Source: Fusobacterium varium (GTDB lineage: Bacteria > Fusobacteriota > Fusobacteriia > Fusobacteriales > Fusobacteriaceae). Taken from it: 64,000 nt of DNA. Of the stretch, positions 8,816 to 13,043 are shown one piece after another (the stretch's first letter is position 1; each line of letters begins with the position of its first letter). The notes beneath the pieces were generated by a model. That model did no database searches. It saw only the letters and a program-made list of their open reading frames with translations, and was not told where the DNA came from. The position numbers were made by a program, and so were the translations under genes. The stretch spans positions 1,240,001 through 1,304,000 of the forward strand of contig AP017968.1 in NCBI GenBank assembly GCA_002356455.1, read 5' to 3'.

Positions 8816-9733
8816 TTATCTGTGTGCTATACCAACTAATTCATTTATATTTTCAATATTATTTTCTTCACAATATTCTTGTAACCCTTCAGCTACTTCC
8901 ACTGGAAGAACAGGATTAAAGAAAATACCTGTTCCAAGTGATACCATAGAAGCTCCAGCCATTATAAATTCAAGAGCATCTTCTGTACTTGAAATTCCCC
9001 CCATACCGACTATTGGAATATTTACAGCTTTATATACTTGATATACCATTCTTAAAGCTACAGGCTTAACTGCAGGCCCTGAAAATCCACCAAAAGTATT
9101 TCCCAGCAAAGGTTTTTTAGTTTTCAAATCAATAGCCATTCCTAAAAGAGTATTGATAAGAGATACAGCATCTGCTCCATTTTCCTCTACAACTTTAGCT
9201 ATATATGCAATATCAGTAACATTAGGAGATAATTTTACTACAAGAGGTTTAGTAGTTACTTTTCTTACTTCTCTTGTAACTCTTCCTGCAACTTCTGGAT
9301 TAGCTCCAAAAGCCATTCCCCCATCTTTTACATTTGGACAAGATATATTCAGTTCTATTATATCCACTTCTTTTATTTTTTCTACTCTTTTAGCTATTTC
9401 TATGTATTCTTCAACAGTCTTTCCATTGATATTTGCTATTATATTAGTAGTGATACCAGCTTCTTTCATATCTTTTAAAATATGAGTTTCAAAATAATCA
9501 ATTCCGGGATTTTCAAGACCAACACAATTGAGCATTCCACCAGGAGTTTCTGCTATTCTTGTTCCATAATTACCATCTCTAGGCTCCATAGTAAGCCCTT
9601 TTACAACTATTCCTCCAAGTACATTTGGATCAAAATAATCTCTATATTCAAGTCCGAATCCAAAGCATCCAGATGATGTAACAATAGGATTCTTAAAATC
9701 GACACCTAAAAATTTACTCTGCAGTCTATTCAT
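8816..9733 (-). CDS. pyrD: Dihydroorotate dehydrogenase, class 1B catalytic subunit
   Basis: 305 residues. The FMN enzyme oxidises dihydroorotate to orotate (step 4) and in class 1B works with the iron-sulfur/FAD subunit PyrK, which is encoded next to it. The catalytic cysteine of class 1 enzymes lies in ELNISCPNV (Cys132), with the FMN barrel motif GMGGISSTEDALEF near the C-terminus. The start is the ATG at 9733, which has TTGGAGG 6 bases upstream. A TTG four codons earlier (9745) is part of that ribosome site and is rejected. The NAD-linked class fits an anaerobe. Confidence 0.95.
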   Translation of the reverse strand: MNRLQSKFLGVDFKNPIVTSSGCFGFGLEYRDYFDPNVLGGIVVKGLTMEPRDGNYGTRIAETPGGMLNCVGLENPGIDYFETHILKDMKEAGITTNIIANINGKTVEEYIEIAKRVEKIKEVDIIELNISCPNVKDGGMAFGANPEVAGRVTREVRKVTTKPLVVKLSPNVTDIAYIAKVVEENGADAVSLINTLLGMAIDLKTKKPLLGNTFGGFSGPAVKPVALRMVYQVYKAVNIPIVGMGGISSTEDALEFIMAGASMVSLGTGIFFNPVLPVEVAEGLQEYCEENNIENINELVGIAHR

Positions 9734-9753
9734 TTTTTCCTCCAAGTTAAATA

Positions 9754-10557
9754 TTAATTACCACAACAAGTTTCTGTTTTTTCAGCAGGTTCAAGATCTA
9801 CAATAGTTTCAGATTTGAAAACAGGACCATCATGACATACTTTTTTCATTCCTTCTTTAGTTTTGATAGAACATCCCACACAAGCTTTTACTCCGCAAGC
9901 CATTCTTTCTTCTAAAGATATTTCACATTCTGTATTATATTTTGATGAAGTTTTTGCCACTGCTTCCATCATTTTATGAGGACCGCAAGTAAAAACCATA
10001 TCGAATTTTTTACTGTTCATAAGTTCTTCCATTTTAACTATAACAGTTCCTTTAGTACCAGCTGAACCATCATCAGTAGTTACATGAAGATCTGCATTAT
10101 CAAAGTTGAAATTAGAAAGAATTTCAACAGCTTCAGCATTTCTGCCTCCAGCTATAAAAGTAACTTCATTGTTTTTCTTTAATATTTCTACCAGAAGTTT
10201 CATAGGAGCCATTCCCATTCCACCACCAACTACTAAAAGTTTTTTACCTGTCATATCAGTAGAAAATCCATGTCCAAGAGGACCTTGAATATTTATAGTT
10301 TCTCCAGCTTTCATTTCAGAAAATTCTTTTGTTCCTCCACCTTTTACTTCATAGTAAAATTCAAGTTCCATTTTATTTTTATCTACATAGTGCAGACTTA
10401 TTGGTCTTCTCAGTATATGAAGTTTATTTTTGCATTGAATCATAAAGAATTGCCCAGCTTTTGATACTGGTATGCTTTTTTCAGCTTTTAATCTCATAAG
10501 ATAATTTTGTCCTGCAATATTTTTATTTTCTAAAATCAGACAATCTTCTAAAAACAT
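9754..10557 (-). CDS. pyrK: Dihydroorotate dehydrogenase electron-transfer subunit
   Basis: 267 residues. It carries electrons from PyrD to NAD+ through FAD and a 2Fe-2S cluster. The FAD-binding motif ILRRPISLH is at about 48-56, a glycine-rich nucleotide-binding motif VVGGGMGMAP is near 110, and the cluster ligands are in CGVKACVGCSIKT...KVCHDGPVF. The last residues (ETCCGN) are cysteine-rich in an unusual way. It lies 29 bases after pyrB and 20 before pyrD. The ATG has GTAGGAGG upstream. Confidence 0.93.
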   Translation of the reverse strand: MFLEDCLILENKNIAGQNYLMRLKAEKSIPVSKAGQFFMIQCKNKLHILRRPISLHYVDKNKMELEFYYEVKGGGTKEFSEMKAGETINIQGPLGHGFSTDMTGKKLLVVGGGMGMAPMKLLVEILKKNNEVTFIAGGRNAEAVEILSNFNFDNADLHVTTDDGSAGTKGTVIVKMEELMNSKKFDMVFTCGPHKMMEAVAKTSSKYNTECEISLEERMACGVKACVGCSIKTKEGMKKVCHDGPVFKSETIVDLEPAEKTETCCGN

Positions 10558-10586: not shown

Positions 10587-11651
10587 TTATTTTATTTCCT
10601 TACCACAATAGTAGCAGAATTTACCATAATCCTTTACTACTACTTTATTTGGTGTTTCTTCAAAATGAGTTACACATTTATGATTAGAACATACAATTTT
10701 ATCATTTGCTACTACATTTTTTTCTTCTTTAACAGGGGCAGTAGATTTTTTTACTCCCAGTGCAAGAGCAAACATAGCTTCTCTCACAGGAACTCCATTG
10801 GCAGCCTGTTTAAAATATAGAGCATGTTTTGTATCATCTAAGTCTACACTTATCTCATCAACTCTAGGTAAAGGATGCATAACTATCATATGATCCTGAC
10901 ATTTTCCAAGTATTGTTTCCTTGGATATTTTATATACTCCGCTGACTTTATTAAATTCCTCAATATTTTCAAATCTTTCTTTTTGTATTCTTGTCATATA
11001 CAGAACATCTATTTCAGAAAGAATAGGCTCATATTCAGAACAAATATGATATTTCATTCCTTTTTCATCAAGTTCTTTTGTAATATATTCAGGTATCTGA
11101 ATAGAATCTGGAGCTACAAAATAAAATTCTGCATCAAACATTTCCAAAGCTTTAGTAAGTGAATGGACTGTTCTTCCATATTTAAGATCTCCAACAAAAG
11201 CTATTTTTACACCTTCTATTTTCCCTAATTCTTTTTTTATTGTAAAAAGATCTAAGAGTGTCTGGCTTGGGTGTTCATTAGAACCATCACCAGCATTAAT
11301 TACAGGATTTTTAGAAACTTCAGAAGCAAACTTAGGACCACCTTCTATGTTATGTCTCATAACAATAATATCAGAATATGCTTCTACCATTTTTACTGTA
11401 TCTCTCAGAGATTCTCCTTTTTTTACAGAAGTAGCATCTGGAGAGTCAAAACCTAGAACTTTTCCACCAATTCTATATGCAGCAGATGTAAAAGATAATC
11501 TTGTTCTAGTAGATGGTTCAAAGAAAAGACTTCCTACTATTTTTCTATCTATTAAATTAGGTTCTGGTTTTTCAGATAATTCAAGAGCTAAATCTAGAAC
11601 TTCTAAAACTTCCTCTTTTGTCAAATCTTTTATTGAGATAAAATCTTTCAT
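10587..11651 (-). CDS. pyrB: Aspartate carbamoyltransferase with a C-terminal PyrI-type zinc domain
   Basis: 354 residues from the ATG at 11651, which has GGGAGGG 8 bases upstream; an in-frame ATG 24 codons earlier lies across the leader terminator and is rejected. It joins aspartate and carbamoyl phosphate, the committed step of UMP synthesis. The carbamoyl-phosphate motif FFEPSTRTR (43-51), HPSQTLLD and HPLPRVDEI identify the catalytic chain. Unlike a plain PyrB of about 305 residues, it carries an extra 45 residues with C-x4-C (321, 326) and C-x2-C (346, 349). This resembles the zinc-binding domain of the regulatory chain PyrI, without PyrI's nucleotide-binding half. First gene of the operon. 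Confidence 0.93.
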   Translation of the reverse strand: MKDFISIKDLTKEEVLEVLDLALELSEKPEPNLIDRKIVGSLFFEPSTRTRLSFTSAAYRIGGKVLGFDSPDATSVKKGESLRDTVKMVEAYSDIIVMRHNIEGGPKFASEVSKNPVINAGDGSNEHPSQTLLDLFTIKKELGKIEGVKIAFVGDLKYGRTVHSLTKALEMFDAEFYFVAPDSIQIPEYITKELDEKGMKYHICSEYEPILSEIDVLYMTRIQKERFENIEEFNKVSGVYKISKETILGKCQDHMIVMHPLPRVDEISVDLDDTKHALYFKQAANGVPVREAMFALALGVKKSTAPVKEEKNVVANDKIVCSNHKCVTHFEETPNKVVVKDYGKFCYYCGKEIK

Positions 11652-11683: not shown

Positions 11684-11728
11684 AAAAAAGGGAACGAAAA
11701 TCACAAAATGATGTGAGTTCCATTCCCT
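11684..11728 (-). terminator. pyr leader attenuator (intrinsic terminator)
   Basis: On the minus strand AGGGAATG (11721-11728) pairs with CGTTCCCT (11689-11696), with an inner TCACA/TGTGA pairing. T runs on for 6 bases (11684-11689). It sits between the pyr promoter and pyrB, and the leader ORF stops inside the hairpin (TGA at 11701-11703). Transcription of the operon must pass it, so it acts as an attenuator. Confidence 0.85.
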
Positions 11729-11829
11729 ATAATAAAAATGTTTTTTAAAATATTTAAAAATAGAAAAATAAAATAAATGAATCCTAAGATAGAAATTGGT
11801 ATATTCAATTTATCATCAAATATCTTCAT
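11701..11829 (-). CDS. pyr operon leader peptide (PyrL-like, 42 residues)
   Basis: A short ORF starts at ATG 11829, with AAGGAGG 9-10 bases upstream, and ends with TGA at 11701. It encodes MKIFDDKLNIPISILG followed by a strongly hydrophobic stretch rich in Phe, Ile and Leu, ending NGTHIIL. The mRNA for its second half (11728-11781) is 33 of 54 bases U. The ORF runs into the attenuator hairpin. This is the design of E. coli pyrL (44 codons), where low UTP slows RNA polymerase in the U-rich leader, the ribosome catches up, and the terminator cannot form. The peptide itself probably has no function. Homology to pyrL is not claimed, only the same architecture. Confidence 0.7.
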   Translation of the reverse strand: MKIFDDKLNIPISILGFIYFIFLFLNILKNIFIIGNGTHIIL

Positions 11830-11867
11830 ATATCTATATCCTCCTTGTATTTTTCTATATCTTGATT

Positions 11868-11896
11868 ATGATATCACACTTTTTAGAAAAATTCAA
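11868..11896 (-). promoter_or_regulatory. pyr operon promoter
   Basis: On the minus strand TTGAAT (11891-11896) and TATCAT (11868-11873) are spaced 17 bp apart. The expected start near 11861 gives a leader of about 30 bases before the leader ORF. It begins 14 bases after the thiB stop codon. Confidence 0.7.
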
Positions 11897-11909: not shown

Positions 11910-12884
11910 TTATTTTTTTAAAATTTCTATTAACTCTGATTTATACTTATCAAGATTTTTAACAAGATCTTTTACCTGTTCATCACTAAGTTTTACAGTT
12001 TTTTCAGTAACAGGAACAAATTTGAATTCTTCAGTAAGAGAAGTTTCAATAACTGGAAACATATAATTTTTTTTAGGAACTAGATTTTGAAAATCTTCAT
12101 TGAGAATATATTCCATAAATTTTTTAGCTCCTTCTTTTGTTTCTTTTTTATTTACTAAAGATGCACCTTCTAAATACATAAAAGTTCCATCCTCTAAAAG
12201 AAAGCTGCTGAATCTGCTTTGTTCTTCATCCTGTGAAAAGAAAAGATTGCTTGTAGCATATCCAACCATCATAGGAGCTTCTCCAGCAGTAAACTTAGCA
12301 AATGCTTCACTCCAACCTGGTTCAGCAGTATATATGGCAGGCTTTAAAATATTCCAGAAATTTTTCCAGTTTTTTCCATATAAAGCTATGCTCCATAAAA
12401 GAGCTTCTTCACCAGTAGAAGAAGTAGCAGGATTTTCAACTAAAAGCTGTTTTTCTAATTTACCAAGTTCTGCCAGATTTTTTGGAGGAACAGGGATTTT
12501 TTTTGTATCATAATTAATAGCAAGAAGCCCATAGTCAAAAGGAGTTGCATATCCTTCTTTATCCATTATAAAATTACTGCTCTTTATATTGGAAATGTTT
12601 TTAGGAATATAAGGAATAATAAGATTTTCTTTTTTTGCTATCTCAGTACTTAAAGAAGTCAGTCCAATAACAATATCTGCTTTAGGATTTTTTTCTTCAA
12701 GTTTCAGTCTTGATACAAGACCATCAATAGATATGAATTTAATATCTACTCCAGTTTTTTCTTTAAATATTGGGGCAAAAGTTTTTCCTATCCACTTTGT
12801 AGAACTAGGGCCGTAAATTACTATTTCTTCTGAAAAAGAAGAAATAGACAGCAGTAAAAATAAAGATAAAATAAATTTTTTCAT
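11910..12884 (-). CDS. thiB: Thiamine ABC transporter substrate-binding protein
   Basis: 324 residues with a cleavable signal peptide (about 1-18, MKKFILSLFLLLSISSFS) and no lipobox, so periplasmic. It has the extracellular solute-binding type 1 fold with the ThiB/TbpA-like ligand motif NPATSSTGEEALLWS and a C-terminal GWSEAFAKFTAGEAPMM segment. It delivers thiamine or its phosphates to an inner-membrane importer. A TPP riboswitch directly upstream confirms the vitamin link. No permease or ATPase gene follows; the pyr promoter does, so the rest of the importer must be encoded elsewhere. The ATG has AGGAGGA upstream. Confidence 0.9.
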   Translation of the reverse strand: MKKFILSLFLLLSISSFSEEIVIYGPSSTKWIGKTFAPIFKEKTGVDIKFISIDGLVSRLKLEEKNPKADIVIGLTSLSTEIAKKENLIIPYIPKNISNIKSSNFIMDKEGYATPFDYGLLAINYDTKKIPVPPKNLAELGKLEKQLLVENPATSSTGEEALLWSIALYGKNWKNFWNILKPAIYTAEPGWSEAFAKFTAGEAPMMVGYATSNLFFSQDEEQSRFSSFLLEDGTFMYLEGASLVNKKETKEGAKKFMEYILNEDFQNLVPKKNYMFPVIETSLTEEFKFVPVTEKTVKLSDEQVKDLVKNLDKYKSELIEILKK

Positions 12885-12913: not shown

Positions 12914-12947
12914 AAAAAAAGCTGTCTGAAATAGATAAATAGACAAC
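12914..12947 (-). terminator. TPP riboswitch terminator
   Basis: On the minus strand GTTGTCT (12941-12947) pairs with AGACAGC (12921-12927), followed by seven T (12914-12920). It lies between the TPP aptamer and the thiB ribosome site, as expected for ligand-induced termination. Confidence 0.85.
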
Positions 12948-12949
12948 TT

Positions 12950-13043
12950 AAAACATTTCCTACGTTGGCATTATCCAAATCAGGTTTAACGGTCGAAATA
13001 AAATTTCCTCTCAGCTTTTTTAGCTCCCGCATGATAATATTTT
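12950..13043 (-). promoter_or_regulatory. TPP riboswitch (THI element)
   Basis: On the minus strand the conserved aptamer parts appear in order: GCGGGAGC, GCTGAGAGG, GACCGTTAAACCTGATTTGG, ATAATGCCAACGTAGGAAA. P1 pairs 13036-13043 with 12950-12957 over 8 bp including one G-U. The aptamer binds thiamine pyrophosphate, and binding should favour the terminator just downstream and shut off thiB. Confidence 0.96.

What the first reader, a model, noticed from the sequence alone, without database searches (positions are those of the whole stretch)
11684..11896. pyrL-like U-rich leader ORF overlapping a terminator ahead of pyrB: a UTP-sensing attenuator outside the proteobacteria
Between a clear promoter (11868-11896) and pyrB lies a 42-codon ORF with a strong ribosome site (start 11829). 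Its second half is 61% U (33 of 54 bases, 11728-11781), and it ends inside an intrinsic terminator (11684-11728). E. coli pyrBI uses the same order, with a 44-codon pyrL leader: low UTP stalls RNA polymerase in U-rich RNA, the ribosome catches up and stops the hairpin from forming. No PyrR-binding loop is visible. I know of no report of this mechanism in Fusobacterium. Similar architecture without shared protein sequence suggests convergence.
Basis: partly seen in the sequence, partly recalled or inferred. Interest (0 to 1): 0.82.

Follow-up and report, generated by a model that had tools for sequence, protein, structure and literature searches.

The report
U-rich leader attenuator of fusobacterial pyrimidine genes
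In front of the pyrimidine-making genes of Fusobacterium and many of its relatives lies a short, uracil-rich reading frame that ends inside a stop-transcription hairpin, which looks like a switch that reads the cell's UTP level without any sensor protein, as in one E. coli operon but used here on several operons.

Summary
It is not chance. The same architecture lies before pyrB in 44 of 85 Fusobacteriota genomes examined (13 genera, three families), with unrelated peptides but an open frame, a U bias also at synonymous positions, and the stop inside the hairpin in 38 of 44. The element follows the pathway, not pyrB itself: it also heads carA (19 of 46 carA loci, both carAB operons of this genome) and, in two genomes of one genus, pyrK. 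In 864 kb of this genome only 4 of 622 terminators show the architecture with a U-rich tract; three are pyrB, carA and carA2. PyrR is absent except in one genus, which has PyrR, its RNA site and no such leader. No antiterminator and no conserved peptide were found. Best reading: a translation-coupled, UTP-sensing attenuator that works like E. coli pyrL, spread over a pyrimidine regulon in a phylum where my searches found no report of it. UTP dependence and leader translation are inferred, not shown. Convergence with E. coli is undecided.

The parts
11868..11896 (-). sigma-70-type promoter, TTGAAT-17-TATCAT with extended -10 TG
   Evidence: same place and similar sequence in close relatives
11840..11846 (-). 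Shine-Dalgarno AAGGAGG of the leader ORF
11701..11829 (-). 42-codon leader ORF; stop TGA inside the terminator hairpin
11728..11781 (-). U-rich tract, 33 U of 54, 3 C, 0 G; proposed UTP-sensitive pause region
   Evidence: background
11689..11728 (-). intrinsic terminator hairpin (attenuator), -20.7 kcal/mol
11684..11688 (-). U tract of the terminator
10587..11651 (-). pyrB, aspartate carbamoyltransferase, first gene of the controlled operon
   Evidence: TIGR00670; start set by conservation
9754..10557 (-). pyrK-like electron transfer subunit
   Evidence: best model NF000798 at 217 bits, just under its cutoff of 219
8816..9745 (-). pyrD
   Evidence: NF005574
8064..8789 (-). pyrF
   Evidence: NF001273
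6853..8070 (-). pyrC
   Evidence: TIGR00857
6237..6860 (-). pyrE
   Evidence: TIGR00336

Best explanation
The region is a transcription attenuator of the pyrBKDFCE operon that reads UTP through the speed of RNA polymerase. With ample UTP, polymerase crosses the U-rich leader quickly and the hairpin at 11728-11689 forms, so transcription ends before pyrB. With little UTP, polymerase is held up in the U-rich stretch; a ribosome translating the 42-codon ORF closes up, reaches the stop codon inside the hairpin and occupies its 5' arm, so polymerase reads on into pyrB. The peptide does not matter; that the ORF is translated does. The same design stands before carAB operons and, in one genus, a pyrK operon, so it is a regulon. 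Shown: anatomy, conservation, frame, U bias at synonymous sites, position of the stop, link to pyrimidine genes, absence of PyrR, absence of an antiterminator. Inferred: leader translation, UTP-dependent pausing, blocking of the hairpin by the ribosome.
For: Architecture before pyrB in 44 of 85 genomes, 13 of 25 genera. Before carA in 19 of 46 carA loci, including both carA genes of this genome; in g7, g14 and two of the g25 genomes, where pyrB lies behind carAB, the leader sits before carA. Before pyrK in the two g14 genomes with long stretches. Genome baseline: 4 U-rich hits among 622 terminators in 864 kb, 3 of them pyrB, carA and carA2 (chance that three named heads are all among four hits about 1e-7). 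Frame: chance of the ORF staying open in dinucleotide shuffles 0.00-0.16 per genus over 13 genera. Synonymous U: T/(T+A) at codons with a choice 0.64 in the last 18 leader codons, 0.43 in pyrB; third-position U higher in 12 of 13 genera, Wilcoxon p 0.0005. Stop inside the hairpin 38 of 44, within 10 nt before it 3, beyond it 3; PMC4824070 passages report that a ribosome at a stop close to a hairpin represses termination, and no longer does so beyond about 27-30 nt. The 5' arm pairs upstream with probability at most 0.03 in 43 of 44. PyrR protein over cutoff in 3 of 98 genomes and RF00515 over cutoff in 2 of 98, only in g4, which has no leader.
Against: No expression, pausing or UTP data. 41 of 85 pyrB loci lack the leader by the rule (3 of these have one by eye, so 38 lack it). 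U excess is weak in g8 and g22 (20-23 of 54). The codon-position pattern of substitutions is weak, so the peptide is under little selection. One of two alignment settings gave 7 of 15 ORF gaps not divisible by 3, several of them end gaps from the hairpin boundary. SD spacing is 10 nt here and 14 nt in two g5 genomes. 9 of 28 carA loci in family f1 outside g4 lack it.
Confidence: 0.78

Rival explanations
1. Translation-coupled attenuator with another signal: the leader ORF and terminator work together, but the lagging ribosome reports general translation, ppGpp or another nucleotide rather than UTP.
For: Coupling needs only the ORF and hairpin, which are the shown parts. A is the second commonest base in the tract (18 of 54).
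Against: U is raised even at synonymous sites, C and G are nearly absent from the tract, and the element is almost confined to pyrimidine genes in the baseline scan, so UTP is the simplest signal.
Confidence: 0.1
2. Amino-acid attenuator of the trp/his/phe type, with Phe, Ile or Leu codons as control codons.
For: The leader is rich in UUU and AUU codons.
Against: No alternative antiterminator pairing; amino acid content differs between genera; stalling inside such a leader would favour termination here; the controlled genes make pyrimidines.
Confidence: 0.03
3. Terminator of the upstream thiB transcription unit with an accidental ORF.
For: thiB lies directly upstream and the scan lists no terminator between its stop and the pyr promoter, so thi readthrough would also end here.
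Against: Conserved with other upstream genes, and before carA and pyrK; absent in its U-rich form from 618 of 622 terminators.
Confidence: 0.03
4. Small functional membrane peptide encoded upstream of pyrB.
For: The peptide here is hydrophobic, best 19-residue mean hydropathy 2.41.
Against: The same value runs from -0.08 to 2.77 across leaders, with no shared peptide sequence between genera.
Confidence: 0.02
5. Unknown RNA-binding protein or riboswitch that controls the terminator.
For: The terminator hairpin sequence is similar across several Fusobacteriaceae genera.
Against: No Rfam match at the site, no PyrR, no structured element recognisable upstream between genera by eye.
Confidence: 0.04

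Closest known systems
Escherichia coli pyrBI attenuator with leader gene pyrL
   Same: Order promoter, SD, about 40-codon leader ORF, pyrimidine-rich stretch, intrinsic terminator overlapped by the ORF, pyrB; start-to-hairpin 88 nt in E. coli and 101 nt (median) here.
   Different: E. coli pyrL runs through the terminator and stops 3 nt before pyrB; here the stop is inside the hairpin in 38 of 44. E. coli has 16 U of 54 before the hairpin, here 20-37. E. coli pyrBI also uses slippage at its start (PMC6245113 passages); no T run is seen just after the promoter here. E. coli carAB uses transcription factors and slippage, and the passages name no attenuation for it; here carA has the leader.
PyrR attenuation (RF00515, Bacillus type)
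   Same: Terminator control of pyr genes.
   Different: Needs PyrR and its RNA site; found only in g4 of this family, where pyrB is divergent and no U-rich leader occurs.
Amino-acid attenuators (trp, his, phe)
   Same: Leader ORF and intrinsic terminator.
   Different: No control-codon run common to genera, no antiterminator.
uORFC-13-1 motif upstream of aroF in Acholeplasma
   Same: Promoter, RBS, start codon, U run coding Phe, adjacent terminator (PMC8632094 passages).
   Different: Other gene, other phylum; proposed there to sense the speed of Phe incorporation.

Membership tests
E. coli pyrL-type UTP-sensing attenuator | Leader ORF with ribosome site between promoter and pyrB | tested here: met
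   44 of 85 genomes
E. coli pyrL-type UTP-sensing attenuator | ORF overlaps an intrinsic terminator so that a ribosome can block it | tested here: met
   stop inside hairpin 38, beyond 3, at most 10 nt before 3, of 44
E. coli pyrL-type UTP-sensing attenuator | U-rich transcript just before the hairpin | tested here: met
   weak in g8 and g22
E. coli pyrL-type UTP-sensing attenuator | No competing antiterminator | tested here: met
   one exception with probability 0.14 (L105)
E. coli pyrL-type UTP-sensing attenuator | Polymerase pausing and readthrough depend on UTP | not testable with these tools
   needs transcription assays
E. coli pyrL-type UTP-sensing attenuator | Readthrough depends on leader translation | not testable with these tools
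   needs a stop-codon or SD mutant reporter; frame conservation is indirect support only
E. coli pyrL-type UTP-sensing attenuator | Common descent with E. coli pyrL | tested here: inconclusive
   peptides share nothing visible, but neither do those of fusobacterial genera
PyrR attenuator | pyrR gene in the genome | tested here: not met
   best 29 bits in G000, cutoff 138
PyrR attenuator | PyrR-binding RNA RF00515 | tested here: not met
   none in the window or G000
Amino-acid attenuator | Antiterminator competing with the terminator | tested here: not met

The most novel reading that the evidence does not exclude
Fusobacteriota run a pyrimidine regulon (pyrB, one or two carAB operons, pyrK) with no sensor protein and no aptamer: fast-evolving, sequence-unrelated U-rich minigenes, each placed on whatever gene heads the operon, read UTP through polymerase speed. 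The element is kept while gene order changes, and is missing where a PyrR-type operon is present.
Probability: 0.62. Interest if true: 0.8.

Novelty: new variant of a known kind. Interest (0 to 1): 0.72.

Why it matters
The E. coli pyrBI mechanism is a textbook case usually told as one enterobacterial operon (recalled). A phylum-wide regulon of the same design, with dozens of unrelated leader sequences, would show which features matter (frame, U at synonymous sites, stop in the hairpin) and which do not (peptide). It would also make it testable how tightly ribosome and polymerase are coupled in a phylum far from the usual models, and it offers a simple explanation of pyrimidine control in Fusobacterium.

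Tried and rejected
PyrR control: rejected, no PyrR and no RNA site in this genome. Known RNA family: only the TPP riboswitch upstream of the thi gene was found in the window. Antiterminator: rejected. Membrane peptide: rejected, hydropathy not kept. Leaders on other pyrimidine-related genes: none accepted before the 30 NCS2-family permease loci or the 8 PyrG loci fetched from the same genus; two short TTG ORFs before NCS2 permeases (L225, 29 codons, U54 24; L226, 25 codons, U54 23) were set aside as weak. Non-fusobacterial or doubtful pyrB loci L036-L042: no leader before pyrB (7 of the 9 loci scanned there; the other two, L034 and L035, are Leptotrichiaceae). My first leader finder gave wrong picks for a few loci and was replaced by the rule. 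Three automatic hits (L099, L102, L103) are tails of an upstream gene with U54 14 and were dropped before the counts. 13 of 98 genomes were left out of the pyrB table: 6 with no match and 7 with only weak, OTC-like matches (27-29% identity). F. nucleatum transcriptome mapping (PMC11005410, passages only): nothing on pyr leaders in its main text.

Literature: no report of this element in Fusobacteria was seen in the searches (open-licence PubMed Central only; the primary Turnbough papers are recalled or known from citing passages). For the papers cited I saw search listings and found passages, never a whole text: PMC9291695, PMC5021804, PMC4824070, PMC3766115, PMC3219970, PMC11005410, PMC2965389, PMC4833913, PMC8632094, PMC6245113.

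Full report
Where it is. The window is G000:C1:1240001-1304000 of a 4.12 Mb genome. Its genus in the tool's grouping (g1) also holds G022, whose pyrB contig has the same length (92,754) as that of Fusobacterium mortiferum An814, with a match of the same identity. On the minus strand thiB (11910-12884, behind a TPP riboswitch) is followed by the pyr promoter, the leader, and pyrB-pyrK-pyrD-pyrF-pyrC-pyrE.

The observation. All stated parts are there. The ORF is 42 codons, 11829-11701. Its stop TGA lies in the 3' inner arm of the hairpin 11728-11689. The tract 11781-11728 is 33 U, 18 A, 3 C, 0 G. Among 257 terminators in 360 kb of the same genome the 54 nt before the hairpin hold 19.0 +/- 4.5 U, maximum 32. 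The promoter hexamers alone prove little in this AT-rich DNA (93 sites found, 70 expected).

Conservation before pyrB. One search found a match to PyrB in 92 of 98 Fusobacteriota genomes; 85 with a usable PyrB locus were examined (7 with only weak OTC-like matches left out). A fixed rule (terminator near pyrB, SD of at least 4 bases, ORF of 20-75 codons whose stop is no more than 12 nt before the hairpin) gave 47 hits. Three are tails of an upstream gene and were dropped, leaving 44 in 13 of 25 genera and three families (f1, f4, f6). Three more are visible by eye: L044 and L045 with a distant SD (their ORFs are) and L046, whose ORF runs on to the pyrB start (read). Upstream genes differ between genera (read). 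Median start-to-hairpin distance is 101 nt (74-177); mean U54 is 29.1; the stop is inside the hairpin in 38, at most 10 nt before it in 3, beyond it in 3. Peptides are unrelated between genera.

Frame and U. In dinucleotide shuffles of each leader the same frame stays open with probability 0.00-0.16 per genus; the other two frames hold stops in nearly all leaders. In alignments within clades, internal ORF gaps were 27, 3, 3, 3, 3 and 20 (the last is 21 in net length), against 4 of 17 gaps divisible by 3 in the flanks. A second alignment setting, end gaps included, gave 8 of 15 ORF gaps divisible by 3. Variable sites by codon position in four clades (4/1/1, 14/6/15, 14/9/15, 6/8/9) show little constraint on the peptide. 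U at third positions is 0.61 (mean of genera) in the last 18 codons against 0.34 in pyrB, and where a codon can end in T or A, T is chosen in 143 of 222 leader codons against 2115 of 4958 in pyrB. So U in the RNA, rather than the peptide, appears to be what is kept.

The element follows the pathway. In genomes where pyrB lies behind carAB, I looked at the head of that operon. The same architecture stands before carA in g14, g7 and two of the g25 genomes. Among 46 carA loci scanned, 19 have it, all within the 28 loci of family f1 outside the PyrR genus g4; none of 18 loci from f2, f4 and g4. Both carA genes of G000 have it, each followed by carB. The two g14 genomes for which a long stretch was fetched have a further copy before pyrK. 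In G089 (g25) a leader nearly identical to the carA leader of G090 stands directly before pyrB, and no good carA match was found in that genome, as if carAB had been lost and the leader kept; G089 is a fragmented assembly, so this needs care. NCS2 permease and PyrG loci of the genus have no accepted leader of this kind.

Specificity. In the window (34 terminators) and 800 kb more of G000 (314 and 274), 4 of 622 terminators show the ORF-into-hairpin architecture with at least 24 U: pyrB, the two carA, and the end of a 53-codon membrane-peptide ORF (L167). The chance that three named heads are all among four hits is about 1e-7. The window was scanned at a hairpin threshold of -10 kcal/mol and the rest at -9.

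Rivals. PyrR over its cutoff occurs in 3 of 98 genomes, all g4, with RF00515 over cutoff in two of them and just under it in the third; their pyrB is divergent (35-37% identity) and lacks the leader. A weak RF00515 match in G038 (38.8 bits) is likely chance. No antiterminator: the 5' arm pairs upstream with probability at most 0.03 in 43 of 44 leaders and 0.14 in one. Hydropathy of the peptides is not kept.

Mechanism. As in E. coli pyrBI, where coupling across pyrL is needed to prevent the terminator (PMC5021804 passages) and nucleotide-specific pausing in the leader is reported (title of Donahue and Turnbough 1994 in the reference list of PMC9291695), slow transcription of the U-rich tract at low UTP would let the ribosome reach the hairpin. 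The rule that a stop within a few nt of the hairpin represses it, while one 27-30 nt away does not (PMC4824070 passages, measured on another terminator in E. coli), fits the stop positions here. E. coli pyrL differs in ending 3 nt before pyrB, in holding 16 U of 54, and in start-site slippage.

Verdict. Anatomy, conservation and pathway link are shown; translation and UTP dependence are inferred. It works like pyrL; whether it is the same by descent cannot be decided. By rule and eye together 38 of 85 pyrB loci lack it, among them all 13 g21 genomes; in some of these the leader is on carA, in g4 PyrR is present, and for the rest the control of pyrB is unknown.

Noticed in passing
window 10587-10690, minus strand (PyrB C-terminus): PyrB carries a Cys-rich tail (CSNHKCVTHF...CYYCGKEIK) that recalls the zinc part of PyrI without the allosteric part; Pfam matches only the two OTCase domains, so the likeness is from memory.
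   Followed up: partly
L177 12571-13713 and L178 7317-8369 (G000): Two carAB operons about 15 kb apart in one genome; the CarA of the first reads GISLGAQ where the other reads ICLGHQ, so its glutaminase Cys and His seem lost (motif recalled).
   Followed up: no
window 12940-13040, minus strand: TPP riboswitch (69.6 bits) upstream of thiB.
   Followed up: no
G016-G018 (g4), L083-L089: One genus of the same family has a PyrR RNA site, pyrR and a divergent pyrB in that order, as if a Bacillus-type operon had replaced the leader type.
   Followed up: partly
L013-L025 (g3 leaders): A-rich Lys run (KKKK) directly before the U-rich tract in most leaders of this genus.
   Followed up: no
upstream of leaders in g1 and in g2, g3, g5: Short recurring strings just after the promoter (AAGATATA in g1; GTAAAAAA in g2, g3, g5), seen; role unknown.
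   Followed up: no
L069 (G089) against L111 (G090): Nearly identical leader before pyrB in one genome and before carA in the other; fits loss of carAB with the leader kept, or a misassembly.
   Followed up: partly
L036, L037: Contigs binned as Nanoarchaeota carry a bacterial-type pyrB 53% identical to the fusobacterial one; possibly wrong bins.
   Followed up: no
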